A DNA stretch of 49,774 bases from Cytauxzoon felis (Eukaryota; Apicomplexa; Aconoidasida; Piroplasmida; Theileriidae): positions 1 through 49,774 of the forward strand of contig JAIQCW010000322.1 of assembly GCA_020283715.1 (NCBI GenBank), read 5' to 3'. Made by a program: the position numbers and the translations under genes. Shown piece by piece: positions 1,996 through 49,774 of the stretch (the stretch's first letter is position 1; every line of letters starts with the position of its first letter). The notes below the pieces were generated by a model. The model was not told the DNA's origin and made no database searches. It worked only from the letters and a program-made list of their open reading frames with translations.

Positions 1996-2373
1996 TAATT
2001 CATACGTTGTACGCTTCTACTCTTATACCCAATGTCCAACTCAATACGTCTTGTCTTCCACCTTCCATTGTCTTGCAGACAGCTTTCCTATTTAGTTCAC
2101 CCTCCGCTTCCCTGAGATCAGCTTCGGGTTCCACTCGAGGTTACATCCATAACTCTACCTCCATCTACACTTCCGCCACGATCTCTGGGAGTGGCTATAC
2201 TCTGTAGAGATAGGTAATTAGAAGAAGCCTCCACGGCGAGTGGAAAAGATGGACCTCAATTGAAGAACTGACGGCAGAACCTCTGTTCGAGTACAAATAG
2301 AAGTAAATGTATTCATCTGGTGAATTTAGTGACATTAAATTTATATATTTAATATTATAGTGTTGAAATTAAT
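1996..2373. other. Convergent intergenic region with hairpin-module cluster
   Basis: This spacer lies between the stops of the Cys-rich gene and the FAINT gene. Most of it (about 2055-2290) is the mosaic hairpin repeat described separately. The remaining 80 bases next to the FAINT stop are AT-rich and show no further gene. Confidence 0.7.
2055..2290 (-). repeat. Mosaic hairpin-module cluster 1
   Basis: On the minus strand it reads in the family sense. Recognisable modules are GTCTTGCAGACAGC, the GAGATCAGCT module, CCACGATCTCTGGGAGTGG, CTCTGTAGAGATAGGTAATT, and CCACGGCGAGTGG followed by a CCTCAATTG junction. It is intergenic. Confidence 0.85.
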
Positions 2374-5292
2374 CTAATCTTTATCGCCAATTATTGTATT
2401 AAATTTATTTTCGGAGATGCTTCTCCATTTTTTTCCACGTTTCTCCATAAATATACTTCCCGATCCCATGCATATTTCAATGACTTGATACTCTTTGATT
2501 GGATCATAGTGCATAGAAACAAATGAACTGTAAATTTCTGGATTATTTGAATGCCATATTGTCGTTGAACCCTCTAAAATTTTAAAAAATGCATACCTCT
2601 CTCTTGGTATAAATCTATAAATCACAGCGTCTCCATCATTCTCAACATCTACTGAATATAAATTATCAGATAACGACTCTAATATATCTACAGCTACACT
2701 TATTGGATGACCCTTGTCCTTCTTCTCATCCTCTTCACTTGAATCATCTGCCCTGCCCAACTTCTTCCTTGTCTTTTTCTTCTTCTTAATCCTCGACATG
2801 TCCTTTGGCTTCGCACCCAAATCCATAGTAGGCGCACCTAATGTTGATGGATGCATAGGAGGCGGTTGTGGAGGAGTAGAAGGAACTGATGCAGAACCAA
2901 CCACATCACTTACATCCGAAGCCATTACACCCCCCTTACCAATAGAACCCAAAGTCCTGTCAACTTCACCTTCACCTCCACCTGAGGTCGTCCTGCCGTC
3001 AGCTCTTCCTTTTACTTCCCCCTCCGCTTCACGTAGATCAGCTGCGGGTGTTCCACTCGAGGTTACATCCTCACTTCCGGCATTGGCAGGTATATTGCCA
3101 TACGTCACGTGATCCGTCCTCCCACCAGAGGTCACATCTCCACCTCTGACACCCTCTACAGTATAATAATTCGCATCACTCGGCTTTTGATTGGATTTAT
3201 TATCATAATTAACATAATCAGAAGCTGCGACCGCTTGCTCTTCATATTTACGCGGATCGATTGCAACTGCCGCTTCAGCACCCTCAGCACCTCCAGACGC
3301 TTCAGTCGGCCTAGATAGCAAATCATATGTTCCAGTCTCAGTTTTAAATCGAGTACTACTAACATGTTTATCATCCCCATCTTCTTTCAAGGATGGAGTT
3401 GACGATCTCTTGCGTAAATCAAGCTTGGGATGAGACCTCTTTGGTCCACCCTTCTTCTTATAATGATCCGGCCTAGGCTCAAATATCCCCGAAGTTATAT
3501 CAAGATCAGGCAATGAATCTGTGTACGAGGCTGAAGATTGCGTTAGACGCCGTCTGTCAGGACTATCTCTACTCATTAACATCGCCAATGCTCTATTCTC
3601 TTCTCTTGCCATATGATCTCTAATCAAACGATGATAATTTCTAATATCCGGTATTATATTCTTACCACTTCGAAGTTTACTATATAAACCACGAGCCATA
3701 AATGGTAACACAGGTAACCAATAACTATCCCATTGACAATGATACTCGAAATCATTTTCATTTTCACCCTGCACTGATATACCAAGCAATAAAATATTAC
3801 CACCGAATACAACACTAGTTACATTGTTACACATCTTTTCTCCATAGCCAGACCATAATAATCTCTTCTTTCCATCCGTCACAATATCAATACAATGCCC
3901 ACTGATAGGTTTATAATCATATCTAGTAGCATCACCACACATTGTAGATTTAATTTCAATACCTTGACTCCCACTAAAATGACTAACATCAACTGTACAA
4001 CACTTATATCCAGTTGAAGATGGCTCAAGAGAGATATTCTCAGTAGAAAAGTGTGAACTTTGTTCCGTATCTGGATATAATGTTGAAGATTCTGATGTAT
4101 CTTTAGAAGTTGGTCGTGTAGTATCAGATGATCTATTTTGTTGTGATGGTCTACGTGTAAAATCAATTTCTTCATATATAGCTTCCTCTTCAATAACATT
4201 AGATGGTCTAGATTCACTAGTTCTAGGTTGTTGTGTAACAACATTTCCATTTTCATATGAATTAAAATCATTCCTATGTCGATTATGTTGTTGTTCATAT
4301 ACATTAGCATCTCTAGCATCTTCTGGTCTTCCTCTAGTTAATATTAAATTATCTTGTGGTACAAGTACATTTTCTACATGTATAATTTCAACATCAGGAT
4401 CATTATATGGATCAGATGTACCATTTTCATCTGTTGGAAAGAATTCAAAATCATTAGAAATATCATGTGGAGTAAATGGTTCTGGTAATCTACTACGTGA
4501 AATATTATGCATAGTAACACTAAAATAACGTATATTAACAAGTTTCCATTCATCACCAAATTTTTGATAATTAGCTTTATAATTATAAATTGGTGTATTT
4601 ACATCAAATGCAACAAATATTAATGATAGATCAATAAATGTTGTTACATAAAATACATGATTTGTACCTCCAAATGGATCATACCATATAACATTATTAC
4701 CCTCTACTACTTTTGTTATCCTTTTATTTTTATTCTTTACTTTAAATTCATGTGTCAACATACGCCTTTGAAAATGTGAATCAAAATTAATATCATTAGT
4801 CTCTTGTAAATTTGTTACATCAACTGTAATATGATGCGGCTTATCAAAATTTACCTTTGATTCATCATATGTACCATTTTCTAATAAAATTTTAAATTTA
4901 TTAAATTGTTTAGATTTAATTTCATGCCATTGACCTCTAACATTAATAAATTGACGATTTTTTGGAGATAATACACCTCTTTGTGTTAATTTAAATAATA
5001 CTAATTTTTCGGTGTCACGTATAAAATATGCAGCCACTTCCGCATACATATGATTTAATAATCTTTTACGTCTCCATACTGCTCTATCACCATATACTAT
5101 AGAATGTACTTTACAATCTGGATCTATTGAAAATAATTTCTTATATCTATACCCTTTTGAACTTGTTGTTATTTTATATAATTGAGATGATGTATCATTA
5201 CTCAAATCAACTACTATCTTTCTAATACAATAAACATATTTTATAAATGTTAATATATATACCGATATTATTGTACAAAGTATTATCCTCAT
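2374..5292 (-). CDS. Secreted protein with four FAINT-like domains
   Basis: The 972-residue protein has a hydrophobic N-terminus (about residues 2-22, ending ...YCIRK) that fits a signal peptide. It holds four FAINT (DUF529)-like blocks, each with a beta-rich core, a VxxGDxxIW-like strand and a final W: about residues 27-135, 150-260, 430-530 and 885-965. The last one (TTIWHSNN ... FMEKRGKKWRSI) is the clearest. Between them are low-complexity acidic, Ser- and Pro-rich linkers with basic runs (KKKKKTRKK, about residue 855). FAINT proteins are known in Theileria as secreted, often host-exposed proteins of unknown biochemical role. The linker at about residues 705-785 is encoded by a hairpin-module cluster, inserted in frame. 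No introns are needed. Role in the host cell is inference from the family. Confidence 0.8.
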   Translation of the reverse strand: MRIILCTIISVYILTFIKYVYCIRKIVVDLSNDTSSQLYKITTSSKGYRYKKLFSIDPDCKVHSIVYGDRAVWRRKRLLNHMYAEVAAYFIRDTEKLVLFKLTQRGVLSPKNRQFINVRGQWHEIKSKQFNKFKILLENGTYDESKVNFDKPHHITVDVTNLQETNDINFDSHFQRRMLTHEFKVKNKNKRITKVVEGNNVIWYDPFGGTNHVFYVTTFIDLSLIFVAFDVNTPIYNYKANYQKFGDEWKLVNIRYFSVTMHNISRSRLPEPFTPHDISNDFEFFPTDENGTSDPYNDPDVEIIHVENVLVPQDNLILTRGRPEDARDANVYEQQHNRHRNDFNSYENGNVVTQQPRTSESRPSNVIEEEAIYEEIDFTRRPSQQNRSSDTTRPTSKDTSESSTLYPDTEQSSHFSTENISLEPSSTGYKCCTVDVSHFSGSQGIEIKSTMCGDATRYDYKPISGHCIDIVTDGKKRLLWSGYGEKMCNNVTSVVFGGNILLLGISVQGENENDFEYHCQWDSYWLPVLPFMARGLYSKLRSGKNIIPDIRNYHRLIRDHMAREENRALAMLMSRDSPDRRRLTQSSASYTDSLPDLDITSGIFEPRPDHYKKKGGPKRSHPKLDLRKRSSTPSLKEDGDDKHVSSTRFKTETGTYDLLSRPTEASGGAEGAEAAVAIDPRKYEEQAVAASDYVNYDNKSNQKPSDANYYTVEGVRGGDVTSGGRTDHVTYGNIPANAGSEDVTSSGTPAADLREAEGEVKGRADGRTTSGGGEGEVDRTLGSIGKGGVMASDVSDVVGSASVPSTPPQPPPMHPSTLGAPTMDLGAKPKDMSRIKKKKKTRKKLGRADDSSEEDEKKDKGHPISVAVDILESLSDNLYSVDVENDGDAVIYRFIPRERYAFFKILEGSTTIWHSNNPEIYSSFVSMHYDPIKEYQVIEICMGSGSIFMEKRGKKWRSISENKFNTIIGDKD
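2930..3150 (-). repeat. In-frame hairpin-module cluster 2 (FAINT gene)
   Basis: This cluster lies inside the FAINT exon and encodes the linker with the signatures DVTSSGTPAADLREAEGEV and GRADGRTTSGG. Modules seen are the ACCTCAGGTGG junction, GCTGACGGCAGG and AGCTGATCTACGTGAAGCGG. It carries no stop in the host frame and is in family-sense orientation. Confidence 0.8.
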
Positions 5293-6061
5293 TACTACTA
5301 CATTTAATATACACTAGTAATATATATATACATGTCTAATTATTATCTATCATTGTATATAGAATATTCATAACCTTATTATCATATTATAATTAATTTA
5401 TATCATGCATAATACTCAATGCATCCTTTTTTTCAATTCTATTCATACATAATGAAGAATGGGGACATTATTCTAGATCCATATAGAAAAACTTGTCCAA
5501 ATTATCATCTCAATTATACATACCTACATCAACTAAACTAGAAAATACATTTATATAATAAATAATAAATTAACAATACATTGTACCAAATATTATTATA
5601 CAAATCAATCAATGACATCAAATGCATGTAGATCCCACTCCACCCGAGGTTACATCCACCGTTCCATTTGCTGTTTCACTTGAGGTTACAACCTTGTCTT
5701 CGTCTTGCAGACGGCCTCCTCTCTTTACTTCCCCCTCCGCTTCCCTGAGATCAGCTGCGGGTTTTCCACTTGAGGTTAGATCCAATACATCCTTAGCACC
5801 ATCTTCCATCATTCCCATGATGGATGATCCATCACTACCTTCACCACGATCTCTGGGAGTGGCTATACTCTTTAGAGATAGGTAATTAGAAGAAGCCTCC
5901 ACGGCGAGTGGAAGAGGTGAAGGTAGTGATTGGACCTCAAATGGAAGACACGTCGTGTAGACAACGCCTCAGTTGTTCCACTCCTTCAGCTCACTCGTTA
6001 CGCTCGTTCGACCTCAGTCATACTTCCTTCGGCAATCGTTTCACTCCTTCGTTTTCATTCA
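5293..6061. other. Intergenic region between FAINT and Derlin genes
   Basis: Bases 5293-5615 are AT-rich and form the upstream region of the FAINT gene. They contain one short ATG frame of 29 codons (from about 5452) that I cannot support as a gene. Bases 5620-6060 are hairpin-module repeat, including a GAAGGAGTGAAACG-type stretch (reverse strand) that touches the Derlin stop. Confidence 0.6.
5620..6060 (-). repeat. Mosaic hairpin-module cluster 3
   Basis: This is one of the most complete clusters. In minus-strand order it has the SSNYLS module, CCACTCCCAGAGATCGTGG, the CATCATGGGAATGATG hairpin, the DLTSSGKP junction, ADLREAEGEV, and several ACCTCRRGTGG junctions. Its left-hand tail (plus strand 5965-6060) is the separate CTTCGTTTCACTCC-rich module. 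It is entirely intergenic, yet its family frame is open for about 94 codons. Confidence 0.85.
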
Positions 6062-7099: not shown

Positions 7100-7616
7100 G
7101 TAGTCATATCTTATACCTGAAGATAGAAGACATTGTTCTCCATCTGCCGTCCCACTCGCCTCCACCTGAGGTCCATCTTTTCCATTGCATGGAGCTTTCC
7201 ACTCGAGGTCTATCCTGCCGTCAGCTCTTCCATTTACTTCCCCTTCCAGCTCCCGTAGATCGCTTCCAGGTATTCCACATTCACTTGAGGTTACATTATT
7301 ATCTTCACGTTCTTCCGGGTAGAATTTCCTGTTCCTCGGGGTTGACACTTTATTTGTTCTTCCGGGTTGAATTCTTGTTCTTAGGGGTTTAACATCTATG
7401 TTCTTCCTGGTTGGAAAATTATGTTCTTCCTCATTAACTTCGCCACGATCTCCGGGAGTGGCATTACTGTTTACGGGGAGATAATTGGAAGAAGCCTCCA
7501 CGGCGGGTGGAGAAGACGATGTTGGACCGTTGGTAGATGTAACCTCAGGTGGACTGGACTGTACCATATTCATAATAGTCTTCCTTGTATGGGTAAATCT
7601 TCTACAAAACAATTTA
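7100..7616 (-). repeat. Mosaic hairpin-module cluster 4 (intergenic)
   Basis: This fills the spacer between the metalloprotease stop and the Derlin start. Modules include CCATTGCATGG, GCTGACGGCAGG, the GATCTACGGGAGCTGG module, CCACTCCCGGAGATCGTGG and CCGTAAACAG. It also contains an unusual triplicated stretch around 7310-7420 built on TTCTTCCGGGT / TTCCTCGGGGT, three related copies in a row. The family frame is open through it into the Derlin frame. Confidence 0.8.
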
Positions 7617-10600
7617 TTAGCTTCTTCCGGTAACATAGACACGTTCGGTGAGTGATGTATCCATTTCATTTCCTGCATAATCTTCAGCTTTAATATTTGA
7701 TAAATGCCAAACACCTGGTATTGATCCCTTTGGTAATACATGCAAATGCTTAATCAATTGCCAATCATTAACCTCCTTCCAAACAGGATATAATAATACA
7801 TTTGCACCAAATGGATCACGTAACTTCATAGATAAAGCCGATATACCACTAGAATCACGAATCTCAAATGATATCTCAACCTAAAGATAATTTGAAATAT
7901 ATAAATTAAAAAACATCAACTGAAATAAAGTGAAAGCCCACAGAAGGTCCCAACGAAGGTTATACAACCTCTCCACTTGAGGTCCAGACCACCATCCTCT
8001 ACTCGGCGCTCCACCTGAGGTCAATCCTGCCGTCAGCTCTTCTATTTACTTCCCCCTCTGCTTCCCTGAGATCAGCTACGGGTTTTCCACTTGAGGTCTA
8101 ATCCCCTGTAACTCCACCTTTACTTCAGTACGATCTCCGGGAGTGGCTTTACTCTTTAGAGATGAATAATTGGAAGAAGGCTCCACGCCGAGTGGAAGAC
8201 AAGGTTGTAACCTCAGGTGGAGAGGCTTCACGCCTAGTGGAAGAAGAGTTGGATTGGACCTCGGGTGGAGAGCTGTCTGTAGGAGAACGCGAGGTTGGAT
8301 TATAATCCATAGGACAGACAACACCTCAGTCATACTTCCTTCGGACTCAGTCACTTCGTTCCTTCGTTACACTATCTTCCTTCAACTTACGACAGTTTCT
8401 CCATTCGGTGAGTTACGGTTGGTTGGATGGCTTGTTACTTTAACGTTTTTAATTTCGGGTGGATTATTATCAACGTTGGTTTCGGTACTGGTATAGTGTA
8501 CAAATGGGCCTTTATTACTGGGCCATTGTAACAATTGTGTATTACCAGCAGCGTCGTAAATTGTAATTTGTGTAAGATAATAATCACCAGTACGTGCAGC
8601 TTTACTCAAGGGGATATTTAACGCTATTCTAAAACAATTAAAATTACCACTTGAAGATTCTATACGACTTAGACCATTATAATACTGTTTTTCCCTTTCA
8701 AATTTAAATAAATTATAAACAATTGATTTATTAATCGAATTTATTCCATTAGACACTTCACATTCACTAGATGGAACCTTTAAACTACCACTCCACACAT
8801 CACCACGCCATGAATCACCCTTTATATAATCACTCGTATTATCACGACCAGAATATGCAAATAATGAATGCTGATTACTCGCATTACCATTCACCGATGC
8901 ATACGCCGTATTCTTGTCCTTCAACTCACCATCATCCACCAATAACCAACTCACCCTTATCGCACTCGATCCTATAAATGAATGAAGATAATGAAGCGAA
9001 GGAGTGTAACGACTGAGACAACGAGTGTAACGAGTGACGAAGGAAGTATGAGCGAGTCCGATGGAGCCTGCGACTGAGGTGTTGTCTACACGTGTCTTCC
9101 ACCTGAAATTACAACAACCTCGCGTTCTCTTGCAGAGAGCTCTTCACATGAGGTTACAACCACCGTTGGTCTTGCAGACAGCTTCCTCTATTTACTTCCC
9201 CCTTCGCTTCCCTGAGATCAGCTACGGGTTTTCCACTTGAGGTTACATCCAACACATCCTTAGCACCATCTTCCATCATTCCCATGATGGATGATCCATC
9301 ACTACCTTCACCACGATCTCCGGGAGTGGCTCTACTCTTTAGAGGGAGGTAATTAAAAGAGCTCCATGCAATGGCAATACGAGGTGGAGTATAGGATGGT
9401 GGATGTAACCTCAGGTGGAGTAGACAACATCTCAGTCATTACATTCCTTCGACAGTCGTTTCACTCCTTCGCTTCGTTCCTTCATCGCTTCGCTCTTCGG
9501 TCAACTTACTGGATCCTTGTATGATTTTCATGGCGATGGATGTTGTGATACTTTTGGGATCTTGGAAATCTTCGGCGCCGTTATTGATCCAGACACGTAG
9601 TCCGAAATCGCTGGTTCCTACAAATCGTTCTAATCCTTTATCATCTTTGATGATAATTTGATCGCTGGTCCATACTCCACGTTTTTTGTATTGATTCATT
9701 GTCACTTGTCCATTGAATTCATGGCTACATTTGAGGGCTTTGAGTGAGACATCGATGAATGTACCAGCATCTGAAAAGAGTCTAAATCGTATAGATGTAG
9801 CACAAGATCCGGGTCCAGAATTGAATAATTTGAATACAAATTTCACCCTTTTGGCATCATTTATTCTTCCTTCTACAATTACATCAACTTGTGATAAACG
9901 TCCTGGATAAAGATAATCTGGATTACCAAGATTAATAACTTTAAATTCATGTGATGCTTTGATAATATAATGTCCACCACCCATTAATTCATTTTTAATG
10001 AATTCATATTTTTTAGGTGCTCTAGATTGTAATAATCTAGGATTTAATACATAATCTGCTAAACTTGATGCAAAATCTTCTGATGGATTTTTTTGATGAG
10101 AATATGCAGATACAAATTCTGTTTGTTGTCTAGTAGACCAACCATCTGGATCTTTAGGGTCTTTAAACCATCCACCAATATTAGACCATTTTTGACGTAC
10201 ATCATTATTTAATGTATTATAATCAATAAAATGTCCAATTTCATGTAGAATTAAATTTGTTACATCTGGATAATTATAAAAACCAGATTCCATAAATTCA
10301 ATATAAGAATCTATACCTTTACCTTTTGGATATGCAATTGCAGGTGCTGTAGGTTCTTGTGGATTTACCATACCATCTAATCTTCTAAGAAAATATTTTA
10401 AACCATCAACTTTATGTAATCCATTAGGATATTCATGCCATGATGTAGCAATTTCAATTAATTCTTCTGGATGTTTAAACCAAGATTGATAATGATTACT
10501 AGGATATGATGTTAATTGTTTACCAGCTTTAATTAAATGTTCTAATTCAAATGGTTCTAATATATCAACATTATGTATCTCTTTAAATAATCTTTTTAAA

Positions 10601-12093
10601 TGTGTTGGTCTATGTAAACATAATGCACGTATAACAGCTTTAAATAATCTTCTAGAAAAATAAAAACCATTCTTCTTCTTATCTATAGCCATCTTTGTAG
10701 CAAATTTAAATGTATCACGTGATATCTTTACAACTTGATCATATTTCGAATCTACATTACCATCTTTATTATTACCTTCAAATGTTGTAATCTCTACATC
10801 TTGTGGATATAATGGACCATCTACTAATATCCATTTCTGATTCTTATTTGATATCAAATGTGAATTCTTAAACCAATCAAAATTCATAACAACAGATAAT
10901 AAACGACTTGAATATTCACTACCCCAAACTCCATGCAATTCTATACCAAATAATAATTTCAATTTCGCTGCTGCATCTGATGCATCCAAATGAGATTCTA
11001 CTGATAAATTATTAGCATTTATTAATGATGCCTCATCATTAGGTACAATATTTATAGTCTCTACACCAAATTGTGATGTATTTTGTAATTTCCAACTATA
11101 TTTATATATAGAATCATCATTACCAGAATCCTCAACAGTTAATATACTAGTATAATTCGAATTCACAAATGGACATTCACTCCTCTTACATGGTATAGAT
11201 ACACGCTGAACACCAGGTAAAAAATATCCAGTACCCTCTGTCTTTATATAAAAATTACCACGAGGTACCGAAAATATAAACTTTGGTGAATCAATAGTAA
11301 CACGATTCTCAATCAACATATCATATCTATTACCATATGTAGTACCAATCATCACAGTCAATGGCTTATCAACCACCAAACCCTTTACAGTACCCGATAT
11401 ACCTAAAATATATTCATGAATCATACATTTACATTAACTCTCCACATGAGGTCCAATCCAACTCTGTTCCTCTTCCACCTGAGGTTACAACCACTGTTCC
11501 ACTCGCCGTGGAGGCTTCTCCCAATTACCTATCTCTAAAGAGTAATGCCACTCCCGGAGATCGTGGCGAAGGTGTAGTCATTGGACCTCGAGTGGAACCC
11601 GTAGCTGATCTCTGGGAAGCGGAGGGGGAAATAAATAGAGAAGGCCGCCACGGCGAGTGGAAATATGGTGGACTAGAGATAGTGATTGTACCTCAAGTAT
11701 GACAGTAAGTACACTCCTTCAGATATATTGCGTTTATTGGGTGGTGTAAAACATACTGTATTTAGCGGATTTGTTTGAAAGGTTGACAGAGTCATGATTG
11801 ACACCGATTGATGTGGGTGCGTTATGTAGAAATGAGAATGTTGCAATACCATTCAAACCGAGTATGGGTGTTGGTACAAAGTATGATCCTAATTCTACAA
11901 AGCTTAATTCATTTTTATCGAATGGTCCATTGAGTTTTTGTTCAATTGGTATACCATTTTGAAATTCTATGATGTTTGATGTTGATAGATGTTGTTATGA
12001 TGACATGGACATACTTGTAGAAAGTTTTATAGAATTAGAGATGTCAATGACTATAGAAACCCATAGAACTATTAAGAACAGTTGAGTATACAT
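7617..12093 (-). CDS. Secreted HEXXH zinc metalloprotease, five exons
   Basis: I rebuilt this as complement(join(7617..7880, 8391..8971, 9510..11402, 11757..11966, 12015..12093)), 1008 residues. All four introns are GT-AG, phases agree, and the total is divisible by three. Exon 1 gives a clear signal peptide (MYTQLFLIVLWVSIVIDIS). The zinc site HEIGH lies at about residues 483-487. A downstream NPSEDFASSLADY about 55 residues later supplies the probable third ligand Glu, an arrangement like the ATLF-type gluzincin fold. Beta-rich segments follow, including DAAGN-type repeats (ITIYDAAGN, EDYAGNE), likely Ig- or cadherin-like. Substrate is unknown; a role outside the parasite or in the secretory pathway is inferred. 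The ATG at 11424 is not the start: it lies inside intron 2. Introns 2, 3 and 4 (354, 538, 510 nt) carry hairpin modules, while intron 1 is a plain 48 nt. Confidence 0.8.
7955..8385 (-). repeat. Hairpin-module cluster 5, metalloprotease intron 4
   Basis: It occupies nearly all of intron 7881-8390. Modules include ACCTCAAGTGG, GCTGACGGCAGG, CCACTCCCGGAGATCG, CTCTAAAGAG, and two CCACTAGGCGTGG/CCACTCGGCGTGG copies. The intron starts GTAAGTTGA and soon enters the GAAGGAACGAAG module. Confidence 0.85.
8985..9505 (-). repeat. Hairpin-module cluster 6, metalloprotease intron 3
   Basis: It fills intron 8972-9509. It includes the CATCATGGGAATGATG hairpin, CCACTCCCGGAGATCGTGG, CTCTAAAGAGTAGAGCC, CCATTGCATGG and CTCTGCAAGAG. 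Both intron ends carry the GAAGGAACGAAG / GAAGGAGTG-type module, in opposite orientations. Confidence 0.85.
11430..11715 (+). repeat. Hairpin-module cluster 7, metalloprotease intron 2 (antisense)
   Basis: It lies inside intron 11403-11756 and runs in family-sense orientation on the plus strand, that is, antisense to its host gene. Modules: CCACCTGAGGT, CCACTCGCCGTGGAGG, CTCTAAAGAG, CCACTCCCGGAGATCGTGG, AGCTGATCTCTGGGAAGCGG, CCACGGCGAGTGG. Antisense placement is seen only in non-coding sites. Confidence 0.85.
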
Positions 12094-12977
12094 GATGTGT
12101 AGTTGTATTAATGTATTGATTAATCTGTAATTTTATACTGTGTTATATAATTTTTATATTGAAAATTCTATTTATATATGAGATTATACTCTGTATTTCT
12201 ATCATTAAAGTACATTAATGACTCTATACTAACCATTTTAGTATAGAATTACCAAAAAATATTACATGTTACACCTTGAATCATCTACCACCTTAATCAG
12301 CTGATACATGCATCATCTCAAGCATTAAACAGAAGATTTTTTTATATCGTATCCATAATAAGATTATCTACCCGGAAGAACAGAACTCTATCCGAGGTCC
12401 AATCAACCTTTCTTCATCTTGCAAACAGCTCTCCACCTGAGGTCAATCCTGCCGTCAGCTCTTCCACCTGATGTCGTCTTGCAGACAGCTTCTCTATTTA
12501 CTTCCCCCTCCGCTTCCTTGAGATCAGCTGCGGGTTCCACTTTAGGTCTAGTACTACTCTTCATTCCATCTACACCTCCATCTTCGCCACGATCTCTGGG
12601 AGTGGCTATACTCTTTAGAGATATGTAATTGGAAGAGCTGTCTGCAAGACGACCTCAGGTGGAGTAGTGATCATTTCAGTTGTGATATTCATTCTATATG
12701 TAAAATTTTATTAAATGAGCTATTTCATTGATTTAAGATAATTATAAATGAGATGATTCTACATGATTCATATAAATGTGTTTGAATTTTATCATCTTTA
12801 TGACATCATGTCCTCATCCCACCTTTGTAAATGACTAGATGATATAATTTAAGAAATATAATAAAATTATGTATAAATTAGTAATTTTAATATTTTAAAT
12901 GACTAATATTAAATTAAATTGTGGAATTTTCATGAGATATTTAAATTTTATAATAATTGTCAAGACGCTCATATGAG
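12094..12977. promoter_or_regulatory. Divergent upstream region, metalloprotease / Cgr1-like gene
   Basis: This is the shared 5' region of two divergent genes, so both promoters should lie here. Bases 12094-12360 and 12680-12977 are AT-rich without a recognisable element, and 12370-12680 is a hairpin-module cluster. No ORF in it can be supported. Confidence 0.4.
12370..12680 (-). repeat. Mosaic hairpin-module cluster 8
   Basis: It begins with a CTACCCGGAAGAACAGA stretch shared with the 7310-7420 and 49610 regions. Then come CTTGCAAACAGCT, CCACCTGAGGT, the CTGCCGTCAG hairpin, GTCTTGCAGACAGC, GAGATCAGCTGCGGG, CCACGATCTCTGGGAGTGG and CTCTTTAGAGATATGTAATT. It sits between two divergent promoters. 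Confidence 0.85.
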
Positions 12978-13426: not shown

Positions 13427-13437
13427 ATATAAACGAA

Positions 13438-13560
13438 TCACCTCCACCCGAGGTCCAATCCGACTCACTTAGTCCTGCCGTCAGCTTCTTTAATTACTTC
13501 CCCCTCCGCTTCCCTGAGATCAGCTACGGGTATTCCACTTGAGGTCCAATCACTAACTTC
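13438..13560 (-). repeat. Hairpin-module cluster 9a
   Basis: A short cluster: CCACCCGAGGT, CTGCCGTCAG, the TCCCTGAGATCAGCTACGGG module and CCACTTGAGGT. It forms the left flank of type B copy 1. Its end GTATTCCACTTGAGGT is matched, inverted, on the other side. Confidence 0.8.
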
Positions 13561-13784: not shown

Positions 13785-13910
13785 AACCTCAAGTGGAATA
13801 CCTGTAAGCGATCTACGGGAGCTGGAGGGGGAAATAAATAGAGAAGGCCTCCACGGCGAGTGGAAGAAGAGTTGTACTGTAACCTCAGGTGGAAGGGTGA
13901 GTGGAAAGAC
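13785..13910 (+). repeat. Hairpin-module cluster 9b
   Basis: Right flank of type B copy 1: ACCTCAAGTGGAATACC, AGCGATCTACGGGAGCTGG, CCACGGCGAGTGG and ACCTCAGGTGG. The first motif is the inverted complement of the end of cluster 9a. Confidence 0.8.
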
Positions 13911-16844: not shown

Positions 16845-16904
16845 AATATTATCATAATTTATACCTTACATTAATACCAATGATATTTCTTGTCTTCAGT
16901 TCCA

Positions 16905-17045
16905 CTCGCCTCCACTTGAGGTCGTTCCACTCGAGGTTCCACCTAAGGTCCAATCCAACTCTCTTGGTCTTGCAGACAGCTTCCTTATTTACCTATCTCT
17001 AAAGAGTATAGCCACTCCCAGAGATCGTGGCGATGGGGTAATAGG
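16905..17045 (+). repeat. Hairpin-module cluster 12
   Basis: Short cluster with several junction motifs (CCACTTGAGGT, CCACTCGAGGT), GTCTTGCAGACAGC, CTCTAAAGAG and CCACTCCCAGAGATCGTGG, running straight into type A copy 1. Confidence 0.8.
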
Positions 17046-17434: not shown

Positions 17435-17845
17435 CACTTCTCCACCTGAAGTCCAGTACTACTCACTTCCACTCGCCGTGGAGGCCTTCTCTATTTACTT
17501 CCCCTTCCAGCTCCCGTAGATCGCTTCCAGGTTTTACACTTCCACCTGAGGTTCAATCCAACACATCCTTAGCACCATCTTCCATCATTCCCATGATGGA
17601 TGATCCATCCATACCTTCTCCACGATCGCCGGGAGTGGCTTTACTCTTTAGAGATAGATAATTAGAAGAGGGCTCCACGCCTAGTGGAAAAGAGGTGGTT
17701 GTAACCTCAAGTGGAGAGCTGTCTGCAAGACGAAGAGAAGGTGGTGAAGAAGGTAATGAGGACGTGACCTCAAGTGGAGAGCTGACGGCAGGAGAACGCG
17801 AGGCTGTAACCTCAAGTGGAGTGGATTGACCTTCGGTTGGAGTTA
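17435..17845 (-). repeat. Mosaic hairpin-module cluster 13
   Basis: Rich cluster: CCACTCGCCGTGG, the CTCCCGTAGATCG module, the CATCATTCCCATGATG hairpin, CCACGATCGCCGGGAGTGG, CTCTTTAGAGATAGATAATT, CCACGCCTAGTGG, GTCTGCAAGAC and GCTGACGGCAGG. It starts right after the Eps15-like stop. Confidence 0.85.
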
Positions 17846-39816: not shown

Positions 39817-40029
39817 TTGTTCTATAGATGCTAATATACAATGATTAGAATGTTTAATTTCATTAAATAATAATCCTAATGATGTAGATAAACAATCTCT
39901 AGTTTTTAATGGTGCTATATTAGGATGGGGTTCATTATTATTATATGATTGCCATATACCTGGTTCAAATATTGATGCTATTATTACATTTTGTAATTCT
40001 ATTGATGATAATGTATGTAAATTTGCTTC

Positions 40030-40262
40030 TTCAGAAAAAAAATTGTATTATTAATGGTATTCTTATATATGGTGCTGTTAAATATTGTAATAATAATTCT
40101 GAATCACGTTTACATAATTTTCCATTATAATTTGGTAATTCTGTTAAATATAATACATCATTTTCATTCTCTATATTAAAATCTGTTGTTAAATTATATG
40201 GATTTGCCCCAGATATTGGTTGTAATGTATTTGTGGGGTTAAACCATTTAAAAATTTTTTTA
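40030..40262 (-). other. Two homopolymer frame breaks in giant gene
   Basis: Minus-strand reading between the two runs gives an open, family-like stretch (NGKLCKRDSELLLQYLTAPY) that belongs to neither flanking frame. The breaks fall exactly at an A7T5 run and a T8 run. Confidence 0.7.
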
Positions 40263-43200
40263 TAATAACTAATATTATTATTATTAATAAAATTTTATAT
40301 TTTTTTATACAATCTATTTTTATATTTTTACCAAATGATTTAACATTTATAATAGTTGTTTTATTATTTATTATATATGACCATTTTAATATAGAATCAT
40401 CTAATGAAAATCTCCCCATAATATTATTATTATTAGATAACCCCACAGATTTTGTAATAAATATAATATCTCTTAAATAATTAAATTCAGGAAACATAAT
40501 AGAAAATTCTGATGAATTACCAATATAATAATTTCTAATATTATATATATTTCTACAATAACCATATTGTAATGATATTAAATTAATAAATAATTCATCC
40601 CCATAATTCATTTCCATATTATTTTCCCAATTAAATAATATATAATTTTTATTTATATTTAATTCAATATAATAAAAATATTCTAATAATTGATTTCTAG
40701 TAATAATAAATATAGGATCTGTAATATTATAAAATGATGAATCTAATAATAAATTTGGTAATAAAAAACCAAATGGTAATATGGGGCCATCTATATTACC
40801 AGAATATATTAATGATATAATACTAGGTATATCTATAGCAATTTTTCTAATTAATGCATCTGTTATACATGCTAATTTACATAATAATATACATTTCTCA
40901 CCTATAATATATCTATTATTTATTAATGAATATGATAATATAGATATATTTCTACATAATTTATATATTAAATATAATAAATCTATCTGTAATGAATGAT
41001 CTATATCATTATCTTTCCAAAAACATTTTAACCCCATATTTAATTTATTATTTAATGATAATGGCATAGGTATTAATTCTAATATAATATATTTTATCAT
41101 TTGATATCTCCATGCATAAGTATATAATATATAATCTCTTTGATTAGATAATATAGTACTAATTTCAATACATTTCCTTAATAATTCACAAACTTTTTTA
41201 AATGAATCTACATTCATATCTATATTTGTTAATATAACAGGTAATAATAATTGTGATTTTATAGTACCTTTAGCTAATTCATTAACATTTGGTCCATCTA
41301 ATCTAAATTTACCATAATTATTAAATTCCATATTCAATTTAATATCATCAATAGAAGATAAACCATGACCCATACCCATAATATATTCAGGTATCATTAA
41401 CTTAATATTATTATATATCTTACCAATCAATAATATAATATGCTTATATAAATCATATTTATTACATATAATATTAAATTTATATGCAATGTCATCAGAT
41501 ATATTATCATCCATCATAATATTACTCAAATTAGGATATATACCATTAGTACAACCCATCAATCTACATAATCTATCAAAATAATCCATATCTAATGAAG
41601 GTTCAGCCGAGGTCTTGCCACTAGGCGTGATGCCTGATGTCGTCCTGCCGTCAGCTCTTCTATTTACTTCCCCTTCCAGCTCCCGTGGATCGCTTCCAGG
41701 TTCCACTCGAGGTCCAGTACTATTCCTCATTCCATCTACACCTCTACCTTCACCGCCACGATCTCCGGGAGTGGCATTACCGTTTACGGATAGGTAATTA
41801 GAAGAGCTGTCTGCAAGACCAACGGTGGTGGTAACATCAGGTGGAGAGTTATGTTTGACAAGTTCCCATGGATCATTATCTGATTTATTATTATCAATAG
41901 TCCAAAAATCCGGTACAGGAATATTTTCATAATCACCAACTTGCTGGTTTTTATGGGGATTATTGAAATTATCGGGTTTTTTATCCCCACTAACCCCACC
42001 TGAGGTCCAATCACTACCATCACCTGAGGTCTTTCTGTCGTTGCCACTCGCCGTGGTGGCTCTTCTATTTACTTGTCCCTTCGCTTCCCATAGATCAGCT
42101 ACGGGTATTCCACTTGAGGTTACATCATTAACTTCACCTCCATCTTCGCCACGATCTCCGGGAGTGGCATTACTCTTTAGAGATAGGTAATTTGAAGAGC
42201 TGTCTGCAGGACGAAAAGAGTTGGATTGGAACTCGAGTGGAGAGGCTCCACGCTTAGTGGGATCAGAGTTGGATTGACCTTTGGTAGAGGTAACATCGGA
42301 TGTAGTATTTGTATCATCGAGTTGTATTTCTTCGGTAGCGAGTAGTGCGAGTTTTTTGCAAGCGAATTCGATGAAAAGTAGTGTACTTTTATGTTTGAAT
42401 TGTTTACGATAATCTTGTTTATTAGAGAGTAGTTTAAGATCATCATGGACGAGTAGGCATATACTGAATTGATAGAGTATATTAACAAGACGTATATCGG
42501 ATTCATTAGATCCATAATGTTTAATAATAAGATTAATTAATGATGTTAATGATTGTATTATACTACCAGGTTTATATTCATTTAATGGTGTATCCATCCA
42601 TACACCACCAATATTATTATTTAATTCTTGTACTAATGATTTAATATCTGTTTTATCTTTACCTTCTGTAAATTGTGTAAAAGTTTCTATTAATAATTTT
42701 TTTGTATCATCTAATTTAGACATTAATGTATTTTTTTTATTAATATTTATATTTATATCATCTATATACCAATTTAATAATACACATTTTGAATTTAAAT
42801 GGGGTAATAAAACACTATAAAGTACCTCATAATTATTAATATTGGGTGAATACATTAATCTATATAATACAAACCAAAATGAACTATGTATTAATCTATC
42901 AGGAATAACACCTTTAAGTACAAGTACGGTATCCCTTTGTAAGGACCCCATTTTTATATATTTATCTACATTATATGAATGATATTTAAGACCAAGTCCA
43001 CCTGTATTAATAATAGAAAAACTATATCTAGAATCATCAGGATATTTATATATAAGATAAAATAATATATCAATAGGTGTATCATCAGTTAATGATATAC
43101 CACCAGGTAATAATAACCATTCATCACATTGTAAATCACGTATACGATTAATTAAATTAAATATATAACCATATAATAATGAATAATTACCATTATTAGC

Positions 43201-43476: not shown

Positions 43477-44152
43477 CTGAAGATAAACATTTCATATATT
43501 ATTTCTATACACAATCATTGAAATCTATTATATTATCCATACAATTATCCACAAATTACATAATCTTTAAATACAAATTTATTAAATCTAATATATTCAT
43601 TATAAAAAAAATCTACAAATATCAACAATATTATTATTCTCATCTATTACACCACCTCTAATATAACCAAGACAAAACACTACACTCCATACACATAGAC
43701 AAACATAAATCTTAATCAATATCAAATTAAACTTTTTTTTAAAATTATTATCATCATTTATATTAAAATTATATAATATAAAAATTATATTAACTTCAAT
43801 TTCATAATATGGAATCCAATGATCATATCATTTAACACCCGACCATTAACACTCCACCTGAGGTTACAGTCCTACTCTTCTTTCGTCTTGCAGACAGCTC
43901 TTCTAATTACTTCCCCCTCCGCTTCCCTGAGATCAGCTGCGGGTAGTCCGCTTGAGGTCTCCACCTGAGGTCCAATCACTAACTTCTCTTCGCCACGATC
44001 TCCGGGAGTGGCTCTACTCTTTAGAGATAGGTAATTGGAAGAGCCTCCACGGCGAGTGGACGACCTCAGGTGGATGTGAGTGGAAGGAGAGATGTGTAAG
44101 AGAAGAGTAGGATTGGACCTCAAGTGGAGTCGAGTGTAGTTGATTGATGTGA
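43477..44152. other. Intergenic region, giant gene / CCT6
   Basis: Bases 43477-43850 are AT-rich upstream sequence of the giant gene without a recognisable element; 43853-44140 is a hairpin-module cluster that ends at the CCT6 stop. Confidence 0.7.
43853..44140 (-). repeat. Mosaic hairpin-module cluster 28
   Basis: CCACCTGAGGT, GTCTTGCAGACAGC, TCCCTGAGATCAGCTGCGGG, CCACGATCTCCGGGAGTGG, CTCTTTAGAGATAGGTAATT, CCACGGCGAGTGG. Family frame is open for 80 codons although intergenic. Confidence 0.85.
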
Positions 44153-46349
44153 TTATTTATTATGCATGGATCTTCCGGCTTTGATGACTTCATCTACGAG
44201 TAGCATTTGTTGTGCGACGGTGGTAGCGATGGTGTATGTTTGTAATTTAACACTAAAGTTATCCCAAATACCTTCAGCTTCTGGTATAAGATGTTTACCA
44301 GTCTCTAAATCTATTCCTAAAGTACGTTGTGTATCTTTTTGTAAATCTAATAGCTCTAAGATAACTTCACGACCATCTAAACCAGCATTATCAGCCAAAG
44401 TTCTAGGTATCATTAATAAACTCTCTGCAAATACCAATACACCATACTTTGATTTACCCTTTACAGTATTCGCATATGACTATAAATTATTATTATAAAG
44501 ATAAACATCAACAAGAAGTACAATCACTAACTTCTACACCTGAGGTCCAATCCACCTAACGTTCTCCTGCAGAGAGCTTTTCTAATTAGCTCTCCCTCCG
44601 CTTCCCTGAGATCAGCTACGGGTAGTCCACTCGAGGTCTCCACCTGAGGTTATAATTCATATTTTCACTTCCTCATCTTCACCTCCAAAATTTGAAGGAA
44701 AATCTGAATTTCTATGGAAACTACTGAAGATATCTTAATGAATAATGGATGAAATTCTGATGTCAATAGTTCATTGAAGAGGAATTTGATGATTGTATTT
44801 AATTTTATCATCCTCACATCATTCCAATTTATATTCATTGAGCTATCCTTACTTTTGTGGATACCGTCATTTTATACGTATCTCGTCGAGATTAAGTTAT
44901 AACCTCAAGTAGAATACCTGGAAGCGATCTACGGGAGCTGGAAGGGGAAGTAAATAGAGGAGCTGTCTGCAAGACGACCTCAGGTGGAACAGCGAGTGGA
45001 GAAAATGGAGGAGTAGATATAGTAGATTGACCTCGGTGGAATAACTACATTCATTTGTGTAAACATACTTGTAGATGATTATATAGTATAATTTCGGTTG
45101 CTCCGGCACCGGGTAGTAGTTTTTTATCTTGTATGGTATTTTTGACGGCTCTGAGTGAGTCACGTATAGCATCTTTGATTTGATTGATTGAATGATCGGA
45201 TGAACCTTTGATAAGTAGTGTACAAGATAATGGATTTTTGACTTGTTCAACAAATGTGAATTTATCATCACCTAGAATTTCTTCATAAACAACACCAGCG
45301 AATCCTAGATCATTTGGTGTAAGATCATCAACAGAATTACATGGATTACCACCACAACATAATGTTAATCTTTCCATATTTCTACGTTTACAACGTCTTA
45401 ATGCAATAATACCTTCTTTAGCTAACATATCTAATGCAGGTGGATCAATACCTTTTTGATTAAATATACAGAATGTAAATTTATTATCAGATGTACAAAC
45501 TTTATTTTTAAGATCAATAATTTTTTGTACTTTTAAATCAGTAAAATTACGTTCAGAATTAACTAATAATTCACGTTTATCAACATCAGAATATAAAAAT
45601 CCTGCATGTACTTCACTTTTTTCATACTCTAATGAACAATTTAATGTTAATATATAAACATTTTCTAATCTCTTAGGCATATCAGGATGTCTAGAACCAT
45701 GATCTAATACCATACCACGTATTAATTTTGTTTCACTAGAAAATCTATGTTTCATATGTAATACTTCAATCATAAATAAATCTAATTCTTTATTAGGTCT
45801 ATATATTAATTTTATAGAATCTAATACCTCATTAGCTATATGTGATGCTAATTTTTTAGGTAATTTTGTACATGTTGATGTTCTACATACATTATATAAT
45901 AATTCCCAATCTAAATTATCTATATTTATATCTATTGATATTTTATTCATTATATCTATTATCTCTTTTAATGCTAAATCAAATCCATCACATATAAATT
46001 TTGGATGTACATTTTGATATAAAATTAAATCTTCACTATTTTTCATTAAACTAGATGAAAATAATACATTTGATGTTGTACCATCACCTGTTATCTCATC
46101 CATAGCTGCAGCCGCTCTACATAATACCATAGCTGTTGGATGTTGTATCATCATCTCTGATAATAATACACTACCATCTTTAGTTATTTTTATATTACCT
46201 GCACCATTTACTAACATTTTACATGTACCACTTGGACCTAAATTACTCTTTAATATATCAAATAAACTCTTAGCGGCATGTATATTCGTAGCTAAAGCAG
46301 CTATCGATTGTAAACTATCAGCACGTTTATTTAATATATTTACCGACAT
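44153..46349 (-). CDS. CCT6: T-complex protein 1 subunit zeta
   Basis: Complement(join(44153..44479, 45069..46349)) gives 535 residues, the usual length for a CCT subunit. It is one of eight subunits of the cytosolic TRiC/CCT ring that folds actin, tubulin and others. Visible group II chaperonin signatures: LGPSGTCKMLV, DGSVLLSEM, the ATPase GDGTTSN motif (DEITGDGTTSNVLF), and the PGAGATEI motif near the end of exon 1. VKGKSKYGVLVFAESLLMIPRTLADNAG at the start of exon 2 is the typical continuation. Zeta is the closest subunit by its N-terminal AxxLQSIAALATNIHAA pattern. The junction CTACAA|GTATGT ... TTTATAG|TCATAT restores the frame. The single intron of 589 nt holds hairpin modules and a type B repeat. 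Divergent from ATP12, with which it shares a 308-bp upstream region. Confidence 0.92.
44540..44655 (-). repeat. Hairpin-module cluster 29a, CCT6 intron
   Basis: CACCTGAGGT, CTCCTGCAGAGAGC, TCCCTGAGATCAGCTACGGG, CCACTCGAGGT, CCACCTGAGGT; left flank of type B copy 2. Confidence 0.8.
44660..44899 (+). repeat. Type B dispersed repeat, copy 2 (CCT6 intron)
   Basis: Homologous to 13561-13784 with the same orientation relative to its flanking modules (minus at left, plus at right), ending in CTCGTCGAGATTAAG. It lies fully inside the intron. Confidence 0.75.
44900..45045 (+). repeat. Hairpin-module cluster 29b, CCT6 intron
   Basis: ACCTCAAGTAGAATACC, AGCGATCTACGGGAGCTGG, GTCTGCAAGAC, ACCTCAGGTGG; right flank of type B copy 2, antisense to CCT6. 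Confidence 0.8.
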
Positions 46350-47527: not shown

Positions 47528-48716
47528 TGTATAATACACTCCACTCGAGGTCTAGTACTACACTCCTTTCCACTCGCCGTGGAGGCTCTCTTATTTACCT
47601 CACCTCGACTCCCATGGATCGTCTCGGATTCTTCGCCACGATCTCCGGGAGTGGCTTTACTCTTTAGAGATAGGTAATTAGAAGAGCCTCCACGGCTAGT
47701 GGAAAGGAAAGTGGATTGAAGAATAGTACTGGACCTCAAGTGGACTACCCGCAGCTGATCTCAGGGAAGCGAAGGGGGAGGTAAATAGAGAAGGCCACCA
47801 CGGCGAGTGGAAAAGATGGACCTCAGGTGGAGTGTTAATGTAAATGTATGAATATCAGATTATAATCTCATAACAATTGGATTATGATAGAAATTATATT
47901 CTATTATATTATACAATCATATTAATATATTATCATTATATATATTTAATTTAACACCATATTTTAAGATTTTGTGGGGCAAAATCACGTAATTTAATTA
48001 AAATTTGAGATTGAAGATATGATTTATAATATGTTAATTGTCTTGAATAATGATTGAATAGATGATAATATGTGGTAAATGATATGTGTACCGATTATAA
48101 TGAATATAATAGTAGAGTAGTATTATAATAATATTAAATACACCACATTAATAGTAGTATGTATAATATGTTATAAGATAATAATAATAATAATGTTATA
48201 TATAATAATTATAATAATTATAGAAATAGTTTATAAATAAAATTTTAAATATTTATATAATATTAATTAATTAAAAGTAATATTAATATATAATGATATA
48301 TAAATTAGAATAATATAGAGTTGATATGCACAATATATAAAATAAATGTAATATAATATAAATGTGATATATATACACATAAATTTTATAATTTCTAATA
48401 TAATTTAATAATAACATGCAATATATATATAAATAAATATATAATGAATTATAAATATAAATAAATTATTGTATTGATATTATATTAATAGTATTGATTA
48501 TGATACATTTCAATTGATAATTAATATTAATGCAATAAAATTAATATATAATTGATAGAATGTTATTATTAAATATATTTAATTATATAAACACTACATT
48601 TAAAGATCTTAAAATAAATTATATTAAATATAATGAAATAATGAAATATTTATTGATTAATAATTATTATCATCTATCAAATTGATTTATATTATTCATT
48701 TGTATATATTTTAATA
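47528..48716. other. Intergenic region, ATP12 / small secreted protein
   Basis: Bases 47540-47835 are hairpin modules. Bases 47840-48716 are an extremely AT-rich (TA, TAA, ATAT) low-complexity stretch of nearly 900 bases in which I see no ORF, RNA or hairpin module. Confidence 0.7.
47540..47835 (-). repeat. Mosaic hairpin-module cluster 30
   Basis: Two head-to-head parts. Left in minus sense: CCACTCGCCGTGG, the CCATGGATCGTCTCGG subtype, CCACGATCTCCGGGAGTGG, CTCTTTAGAG, CCACGGCTAGTGG. Right in plus sense: ACCTCAAGTGG, AGCTGATCTCAGGGAAGCG, CCACGGCGAGTGG, ACCTCAGGTGG. Confidence 0.85.
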
Positions 48717-49226: not shown

Positions 49227-49284
49227 TTAACAACACCCCTAATTTAATCTACTTTCAATCATTAATATAACCACACTAGTACTA

Positions 49285-49630
49285 CAGTCAGCTCTCCACC
49301 CGAGGTTAATCTTTTCCATTGCATGGAGCTCACCACTTGAGGTCCATCCTGCCGTCAGCTTCTCTATTTACTTCCCCTTCCAGCTCCCGTAGATCGCTTC
49401 CAGGTATTCCACTTCCACCTGAGGTTACATCCAACACATCCTTAGAACCATCTTCCATCATTCCCATGATGGATGATCCATCACTACCTTCACCTTCACC
49501 ACGATCTCCGGGAGTGGCATTACCCTTCAGGGATAGGTAATTAGAAGAGCTGTCTGCAGGACGAAGAGATGTGGATTGGAAAGGAGAGTTGGATTGGACC
49601 TCAAGTGGATATCTGTTCTTCCGGGTAGAC
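49285..49630 (-). repeat. Mosaic hairpin-module cluster 31
   Basis: CCACCCGAGGT, CCATTGCATGG, CTGCCGTCAG, the CTCCCGTAGATCG module, the CATCATTCCCATGATG hairpin, CCACGATCTCCGGGAGTGG, and the stem variant CCCTTCAGGG. It ends with GTTCTTCCGGGTAGA. Confidence 0.85.
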
Positions 49631-49729
49631 AATAATGTCGAAGAATCTTCCTCGGTCCCCCTACTTTCAATTATCCATATGAAGAACATGTAATATATTA
49701 ATAATATCAGCCCATATTAACTATTTCTA

Positions 49730-49774
49730 TATGACCTCAGGTTAAAAACCCGTAGCTGATCTCAGGGAAGCGGA
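49730..49774 (+). repeat. Start of a further hairpin-module cluster (cut by edge)
   Basis: GACCTCAGGT then CCCGTAGCTGATCTCAGGGA and AAGCGGA at the very end of the window. Confidence 0.7.

What the first reader, a model, noticed from the sequence alone, without database searches (positions are those of the whole stretch)
2055..49774. A mosaic repeat family made of interchangeable mini-hairpin modules
About 31 clusters in 50 kb are built from the same small set of modules in varying order and number. Nearly every module is a short palindrome with a 2-5 base loop: ACCT-C-AGGT, CTCT-TT-AGAG, GTCT-TGC-AGAC, CTG-CCGT-CAG, CCAC-tcgcc-GTGG, CATCAT-TCCC-ATGATG, CTGA-GA-TCAG. The modules are GC-rich in a very AT-rich genome, join at CCACYTGAGGT-type boundaries, and encode no enzyme. 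I know of no named piroplasm repeat with this construction. The nearest analogies are Rickettsia palindromic elements and GC clusters or double-hairpin elements of fungal mitochondria. Spread by some hairpin-driven or trans-acting mechanism is inference.
Basis: partly seen in the sequence, partly recalled or inferred. Interest (0 to 1): 0.93.

Follow-up and report, generated by a model that had tools for sequence, protein, structure and literature searches.

The report
Gene-invading hairpin mosaics in a piroplasm
A tick-borne-parasite-like genome carries thousands of small, enzyme-less, self-complementary DNA mosaics that also sit, in frame, inside conserved protein genes, much like the palindromic selfish elements described inside bacterial and archaeal genes.

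Summary
The window is one contig of an unnamed 8.62-Mb piroplasm genome; the family spans about 11% of 200 kb sampled outside the window. Full elements are imperfect long inverted repeats: [TCCACYTGAGGT]-cap-left arm-linker-[ACCTCRRGTGGA]-right arm-cap-[ACCTCAGGTGGA]; fold z -4.3 sense, -5.5 antisense, controls -0.8. Arms hold mini-hairpins with constant loops and interchangeable complementary stems: around TCCCNNAGATC there are seven main stem types, 386 of 443 arms paired; genome-wide two matched types number 2,267 and 2,417, one mixed type 5. Caps differ between copies with near-identical flanks (42 pairs). Single arms, however, fold no better than shuffles. Copies spanned by open frames lie almost always in one orientation and frame (39 of 40, 41 of 44), and six clusters in one conserved ORF are absent from seven orthologues. 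I read this as a non-autonomous, hairpin-dependent selfish element working like Rickettsia palindromic elements. No transposase or clear target duplication was found; the copying mechanism and translation are inferred.

The parts
2070..2278 (-). element cluster (cap-left arm-junction-right arm-cap)
   Evidence: token parse
2980..3063 (-). right arm in frame inside a FAINT-domain ORF (2374-5313 -)
5640..5911 (-). element cluster with the 59-nt CATCAT-TCCC-ATGATG linker
7162..7264 (-). right arm with caps, in the ORF that ends in a Der1 domain (whether within the gene is not settled)
7973..8268 (-). element cluster
9127..9418 (-). element cluster with the 59-nt linker
11475..11660 (+). full two-arm element with matching caps
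12433..12662 (-). full element plus extra cap
13444..13545 (-). solo right arm
13786..13892 (+). solo right arm
15224..15389 (+). element in frame in the RRM-protein ORF 14395-15630
16062..16326 (+). cluster with stops, between two ORF segments that by eye belong to the same RRM gene (probable intron)
16912..17029 (+). solo left arm
17469..17819 (-). cluster with three stacked junction-cap units
22977..23231 (+). element cluster
25551..25646 (+). solo left arm
25764..25842 (+). solo right arm, GAT/ATC stem type
26422..26516 (-). right arm with linker
26903..27010 (-). solo left arm
27978..28137 (-). in-frame element in ORF 27074-29131 (Vps62/EF-hand segment collinear with the T. equi DUF3638 protein)
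28903..29014 (-). right arm near the 5' end of ORF 27074-29131
29145..29385 (-). in-frame element near the 3' end of the DUF3638 ORF (not among the six sites shown against orthologues)
29826..30222 (-). in-frame element, one left and two right arms
31670..31971 (-). in-frame element, one left and two right arms of different stem types
33569..33768 (-). in-frame simple full element (exemplar for the fold)
36391..36702 (-). in-frame element
38768..39090 (-). in-frame element with stacked caps
39409..39639 (-). in-frame element; 98.6% identical over 212 nt to 41633-41844
41644..41819 (-). in-frame element; near-identical to 39428-39639, identity ends at the junctions
41996..42212 (-). in-frame element, ORF 40189-43491
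43854..44127 (-). element cluster
44564..44650 (-). solo right arm, in the gap after the TCP-1 chaperonin ORF segment 45051-46364 (probable intron, by eye)
44923..44987 (+). solo right arm, antisense, in the same gap
47541..47830 (-). element cluster with arms in both orientations
49296..49608 (-). element cluster with the 59-nt linker
29035..40047 (-). 3670-aa open frame, orthologue of the T. equi DUF3638/DUF3645 protein, holding seven of these clusters in frame

Best explanation
A family of non-autonomous selfish palindromic elements in a piroplasm nuclear genome. The basic unit is an arm: a junction (TCCACYTGAGGT), one swappable cap hairpin, and a hairpin with the constant loop TCCCNNAGATC. 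Two arms in inverted order make a full element of about 130-360 nt that can fold back on itself. Elements spread as copies bounded by the junctions, and pieces (caps, stems, linkers, extra arms) are exchanged between copies, so most clusters are different mosaics. I think copying and exchange most likely happen by fold-back and template switching of single-stranded DNA during replication or break repair, which also copies a change in one stem side onto the other. In coding exons nearly all surviving full copies have the one orientation and frame that is free of stops, so they would be read as extra peptide; outside exons both orientations occur. Shown: architecture, compensatory stems, cap differences between near-identical neighbours, one junction-bounded near-identical pair, one-frame placement, absence of six inserts from seven orthologues. 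Inferred: mobility now, template switching, that the peptides are translated.
For: Constant loop with many complementary stems: CAC/GTG 150, GCT/AGC 134, AGC/GCT 57, GAT/ATC 19, AAC/GTT 8, GAC/GTC 5, AGT/ACT 3; 386 of 443 arms paired, wobble allowed; permutation mean 119, highest of 2,000 is 148. Genome-wide CAC..GTG 2,267 (in a longer 19-base pattern), GCT..AGC 2,417, mixed CAC..AGC 5. H1 hairpin: in 139 copies, stem positions changed on both sides 57, all complementary, on one side 10. Cap GCC-GTGGA-GGC 48 and GGC-GTGGA-GCC 36 of 97; 12 of 97 not fully paired. 42 pairs of different caps with near-identical flanks, out of 417 caps compared; in one pair the cap alone is replaced between near-identical neighbours (L033). 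Whole-element fold z -4.3 sense (28 of 33 under -2), -5.5 antisense (32 of 33), controls -0.77 (2 of 13). ORF-spanned copies: 39 of 40 left arms and 41 of 44 right arms in one sense frame. Six inserts in one conserved ORF absent from seven piroplasm orthologues. H1 pairing is as good outside ORFs (94 of 101) as inside (44 of 47), so it belongs to the element, not to the host gene.
Against: Single arms fold no better than shuffles. No occupied/empty pair from a close relative was available, so movement is not seen directly. Ends of 858 high-identity matches fall within 9 nt of a junction in 26% of cases against 12% for random inner points: enriched, but most end elsewhere. The one-frame rule is partly a stop filter: in non-ORF left arms the same frame is open in 103 of 108. 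It is not wholly one: in non-ORF right arms an antisense frame is open in 161 of 174, the sense frame in 134 of 174, yet only 3 of 44 ORF-spanned right arms are antisense; the rarity of antisense solo right arms in exons is unexplained. Third-codon-position variability gives only weak (left arm) or no (right arm) sign of selection on the peptide. The stem types are about seven related classes, partly tied to left or right arm, not hundreds of independent events.
Confidence: 0.6

Rival explanations
1. Ordinary MITEs: a DNA transposon's non-autonomous derivatives with a 12-bp terminal inverted repeat (TCCACYTGAGGT), moved by a transposase in trans; the mosaic comes later by gene conversion.
For: Terminal inverted repeats bound the units; element size 133-360 nt and fold-back structure.
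Against: No clear target duplication in 49 junction-flanked clusters (best of 16 offsets 5 against 2.2 expected for 2 nt, 3 against 0.6 for 4 nt). No hit for Y1_Tnp, rve, DDE_3, MULE or tyrosine-recombinase domains, families that rang in control genomes; these searches are six-frame and capped, so absence is not proved, and the Helitron and piggyBac searches rang nowhere and show nothing. A survey of 64 apicomplexan genomes reports no Class II transposons and dropped its MITE candidates as likely false (PMC9141347, passages). Independent caps are not usual for MITEs (general knowledge).
Confidence: 0.2
2. Introner elements: the copies are spliceosomal introns (GAG|GT at the left junction, CAG|G at the right) and never reach the protein.
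For: Junctions contain GAG|GT and CTCAG|GTGG (sequence). Some copies sit in ORF breaks that look like introns (16062-16326; 44564-44987). Introners, repeated new introns, are known in other eukaryotes (PMC9860276, search listing only).
Against: Seven clusters lie in frame and stop-free in one 3670-aa conserved ORF, and further ones in the neighbouring ORFs; introns need be neither multiples of three nor stop-free.
Confidence: 0.07
3. A domesticated functional repeat (binding site for a chromosome or RNA protein) kept by selection at each place rather than a selfish element.
For: Present in 19 of 20 sampled 10-kb stretches, with strict stem pairing in and out of ORFs.
Against: Six inserts sit inside a conserved exon at places where seven orthologues lack them; clusters are mostly different from one another.
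Confidence: 0.1
4. RNA-mediated copying: structured transcripts are reverse-transcribed into breaks.
For: Strong RNA fold of whole elements.
Against: The only reverse-transcriptase domain hit is telomerase; both strands fold; no A tail seen in the copies printed.
Confidence: 0.08

Closest known systems
Rickettsia palindromic elements (RPE-1 to RPE-3 and others), with Wolbachia and Methanocaldococcus counterparts
   Same: Short palindromic repeats inserted in frame in existing ORFs without destroying them (PMC3767692, passages; PMC2996958, passages).
   Different: Those are bacterial or archaeal and, in Rickettsia, 100-150 bp; here a eukaryotic nuclear genome, two-arm mosaics with swappable caps and compensatory stems. 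RPEs are reported to lose repeat identity with time (PMC6649704, passages).
REP palindromes of bacteria (GTAG and CGTC families) and BIME mosaics
   Same: Sub-families with alternative complementary stem residues; dimers of equal or different units (PMC3733652, passages). BIME mosaic structure is recalled, not read.
   Different: Units of 20-40 bp (abstract), named extragenic though intragenic units occur; GTAG families are associated with transposase genes, and no Y1_Tnp domain was found here.
Double-hairpin elements of fungal mitochondria; hairpin elements of sponge mitochondria
   Same: Hairpin-forming, possibly mobile repeats, GC-rich in the fungal case (PMC10085805, PMC2800124, passages).
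   Different: Organelle DNA, mostly intergenic or rRNA; in sponges stems are conserved and loops vary, the reverse of what is seen here.
Coding palindromes in nematomorph mitochondrial genes
   Same: Inverted repeats inside genes whose arms change together; template switching proposed (PMC6649704, passages).
   Different: Arms there encode conserved protein sequence in place; not a dispersed inserted family.
PARCELs
   Same: Coding repeats with dyad symmetry (PMC2996958, abstract and passages).
   Different: A tandem 25-residue repeat protein domain, not a dispersed insert.

Membership tests
Rickettsia palindromic element (works like) | palindromic | tested here: met
   whole-element fold z -4.3 and -5.5; single arms show no excess energy
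Rickettsia palindromic element (works like) | 100-150 bp | tested here: inconclusive
   solo arms about 100 nt; 44 full elements 133-360 nt, mean 251
Rickettsia palindromic element (works like) | in frame in pre-existing ORFs | tested here: met
   translation itself not tested
Rickettsia palindromic element (member of) | sequence homology to an RPE family | not tested
   no RPE sequence was fetched; different domain of life
MITE | terminal inverted repeats | tested here: met
   TCCACYTGAGGT / ACCTCRRGTGGA
MITE | target site duplication | tested here: not met
   49 flanked clusters, no clear excess of 2-4 nt direct repeats
MITE | autonomous partner or transposase in the genome | tested here: inconclusive
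   five families without a hit though controls rang, reverse transcriptase only telomerase, two families without a working control
Introner element | spliced from transcripts | not testable with these tools
   no RNA data; an open conserved frame through seven clusters speaks against
REP with RAYT | associated RAYT (Y1_Tnp) | tested here: not met
   PF01797 0 matches, control rings in 5 of 14 genomes

The most novel reading that the evidence does not exclude
A eukaryotic nuclear genome is being remodelled by an enzyme-less mobile element whose unit of replication is a set of hairpins: constant loops, freely exchanged stems and caps, spread by host DNA synthesis folding back on itself, and tolerated inside essential proteins because the element has a stop-free frame. 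About a tenth of the genome, and roughly 1,000 residues of one conserved protein, would come from it.
Probability: 0.35. Interest if true: 0.92.

Novelty: new variant of a known kind. Interest (0 to 1): 0.8.

Why it matters
The papers seen here describe dispersed palindromic inserts inside protein genes from bacteria and archaea (passages), and a survey of 64 apicomplexan genomes found no DNA transposons (passages). A compact parasite genome with thousands of such elements would make two questions testable: how proteins tolerate inserts, and how a repeat with no enzyme copies itself. The constant-loop, variable-stem pattern is a direct record of hairpin-level change.

Tried and rejected
The 26 similarity-fetched loci in it are biased towards elements; the 200 kb of C162 and C9 come from two of the longest contigs that one search had hit. 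Target duplications: none clear. Reverse transcriptase as driver: the one locus hit is telomerase, and that 3.4-kb stretch carries none of the element motifs searched. The phase between left and right arm (42 of 42 in frame in ORF copies; 46 of 85 in non-ORF copies) was rejected as evidence because the ORF class is defined by openness. The insert peptide in other species: no match at E <= 0.001 among 2,935 candidates, proteins of about 605-1,925 aa only. Empty sites: I only looked for non-element paralogy (28 listed matches of at least 60 nt, some of them element pieces without tokens); no empty-site test was run. Species name: not established; nearest is T. equi, position unresolved and on a long branch. 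Ten paper searches (open-licence papers, listings only unless said otherwise) showed no description of this family; five of them named piroplasms or apicomplexans. In one search, 16 left and 19 right arms near stretch ends were dropped.
Full report
What was given. A reader saw about 31 GC-rich clusters in an AT-rich 50-kb window, built from a few small palindromes in varying order, and proposed a hairpin-module repeat family of a piroplasm.

Setting. The giant ORF's best matches are Theileria equi, Babesia and T. orientalis proteins; a quick tree leaves the window's protein beside T. equi and Babesia, unresolved and on a long branch. FAINT domains occur in two window ORFs.

The repeat is real and widespread. 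CCACYYGAGGT is found 85 times in the window against about 0.1 expected in all 249,774 b examined; 19 of 20 other 10-kb stretches carry it, one does not. The pattern CACTCCCNNAGATCGTGGC occurs 2,267 times in the genome, its backward control 0. Window plus 200 kb (150 kb of C162, 50 kb of C9) hold 154 clusters spanning 11.6%; the window alone holds 34 spanning 14.1%, which leaves 120 clusters and about 10.9% for the 200 kb. Scaled up, that is some 5,000 clusters; this is an extrapolation from contigs already known to carry the repeat.

Architecture. In sense orientation a full element reads: TCCACYTGAGGT, a short linker, a cap hairpin, a left arm (TTCYAATTACCTAT, the H1 hairpin, GCCAC-TCCCNNAGATC-GTGGC), a variable linker, ACCTCRRGTGGA, a right arm (the TCCCNNAGATC hairpin in reverse, and a stretch complementary to TCTAATTACCT), a cap in reverse, ACCTCAGGTGGA. 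Left and right arms are related and inverted, so the whole element can fold back: z -4.28 on average in sense (28 of 33 below -2), -5.48 in antisense (32 of 33), against -0.77 for 13 GC-rich element-free controls (2 of 13). Controls were few and had lower GC (0.44 against 0.50), but z is against each sequence's own dinucleotide shuffles (25 each).

Mini-hairpins. Single 79-nt arms show no excess stability: mean z -0.45 (n=50) and 0.03 (n=50), controls -0.05 (n=80). The evidence for pairing is covariation. Around the constant loop TCCCNNAGATC (one mismatch allowed) the flanking triplets are CAC/GTG 150, GCT/AGC 134, AGC/GCT 57, GAT/ATC 19, AAC/GTT 8, GAC/GTC 5, AGT/ACT 3; 386 of 443 arms are fully paired with wobble allowed; permutations give 119 on average and at most 148 in 2,000. 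Copies are related, so these are about seven types, not hundreds of events, and type is partly tied to left or right arm. Genome-wide, GCT..AGC occurs 2,417 times and the mixed CAC..AGC 5 times. In H1, 129 of 139 copies pair perfectly; stem positions differ from CTCT-AA-AGAG on both sides 57 times, always complementary, and on one side 10 times. The types CTCT/AGAG, CCCT/AGGG, CCGT/ACGG and CCCA/TGGG are linked by single base-pair steps. The CCAC cap occurs as GCC-GTGGA-GGC (48) and GGC-GTGGA-GCC (36) of 97, with 12 not fully paired. Three caps share a TTGCA-type loop with different stems (GTC/GAC, CTC/GAG, CCA/TGG; sequence).

Interchange. Left and right caps within an element are independent: 34 of 110 the same type, 30.1 expected. 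Forty-two pairs of copies have near-identical flanks but different caps (pairs share copies, so fewer events). In one near-identical pair the cap alone is replaced between matching neighbours (L033). Among 40 pairs with at most 6 differences in 68 flank positions, H1 is identical in 21, differs by 1-2 in 4 and by 3-4 in 15; in 14 of those 15 both members are perfectly paired. The pair 41633-41844 / 39428-39639 is 98.6% identical and its identity stops at the junctions. Over 858 high-identity matches the ends lie within 9 nt of a junction in 26%, against 12% for random inner points.

Place in genes. Of 145 left arms away from stretch ends, 40 are spanned by an open frame reaching at least 120 nt past both cluster ends, 39 in one sense frame (..TPGDRG..) and 1 antisense; of 209 right arms 44 are, 41 in one sense frame and 3 antisense. 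The 3670-aa ORF 29035-40047 with its neighbours 40189-43491 and 27074-29131 is collinear with one 4,405-aa T. equi protein; eight gaps in the protein match hold 1,057 window residues against some 65 in T. equi, by the match coordinates. Element peptides lie in them; the largest gap also holds about 50 residues between two clusters that are not element. Against seven orthologues, 18 stretches of 10 or more residues are window-only and 15 of these contain element peptide; the six clusters displayed are absent from all seven, although T. orientalis and B. duncani have unrelated extra residues of their own at some of the sites. The seventh cluster of this ORF, near its end, was not shown this way. 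Other copies lie in probable introns or between genes, some antisense.

Coding signal. The one-frame rule is partly a stop filter: the sense frame is open in 103 of 108 non-ORF left arms, other frames in 2 to 32 of 108. For right arms it is not: an antisense frame is open in 161 of 174 and the sense frame in 134 of 174 non-ORF copies, yet exonic copies are nearly all sense. Across the left-to-right stretch antisense frames are open in at most 5 of 95. Peptide-level selection is weak at best: third-position entropy 0.64 against 0.37 and 0.42 in ORF left arms (0.58 against 0.45 and 0.55 outside), no excess in right arms. Stem pairing is alike in and out of ORFs (44 of 47, 94 of 101).

Mechanism. 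The elements read here encode no enzyme. In this genome no Y1_Tnp, rve, DDE_3, MULE or tyrosine-recombinase domain was hit, all families that rang in control genomes; Helitron and piggyBac searches had no working control. The only reverse-transcriptase locus hit is telomerase. Forty-nine clusters flanked by junctions show no clear target duplication. I therefore prefer spread and exchange by fold-back and template switching in host DNA synthesis; template switching is named as one possible mechanism for co-evolving palindrome arms in nematomorph mitochondria (PMC6649704, passages). That step is inference.

Comparison and novelty. It works like Rickettsia palindromic elements; membership was not tested by homology and is unlikely across domains. 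It resembles REPs in having subfamilies with alternative complementary stems (PMC3733652, passages), and fungal and sponge mitochondrial hairpin elements in make-up (passages), though in sponges stems are conserved and loops vary. The survey of 64 apicomplexan genomes reports LINE-like elements in some Babesia and in T. equi, none in C. felis, T. parva, T. annulata or T. orientalis, no Class II transposons, and MITE candidates removed (PMC9141347, passages). None of the ten paper searches listed a description of this family (open-licence papers only). I call it a new variant of a known kind.

Noticed in passing
window 9442-11433 (-): 664-aa ORF with a match to Pfam ATLF (29.6 bits, cut-off 27.4) and an HEIGH motif: a zinc-metallopeptidase-like domain.
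   Followed up: no
window 23625-25484 (+): One ORF joins a FAINT domain to a serine-aminopeptidase-type hydrolase domain.
   Followed up: no
window 1-1899 (+): Cysteine-rich open frame with no Pfam match; reminiscent by eye of piroplasm variant surface antigens (recalled).
   Followed up: partly
L040 (G000:C162:90001-100000): The only one of 20 sampled 10-kb stretches without any CCACYYGAGGT.
   Followed up: no
330-kb sample: Among paired H1 stems, ORF left arms carry types other than CTCT/AGAG far more often than other copies: 25 of 44 against 11 of 94.
   Followed up: no
non-ORF right arms, 330-kb sample: An antisense frame through right arms is open in 161 of 174 copies, yet antisense exonic right arms are rare (3 of 44).
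   Followed up: no
window 7354-7413; L048 about 8830-8960; L033: A further short repeat, ACCCGGAAGAAC / ACCCCTAAGAAC, in tandem runs inside element linkers.
   Followed up: no
flanks such as window 31650-31670: Half a CCAC cap often lies just outside the outer junction (CCACTMGCCGTT before CCACCTGAGGT), as if elements inserted into or beside older ones.
   Followed up: no
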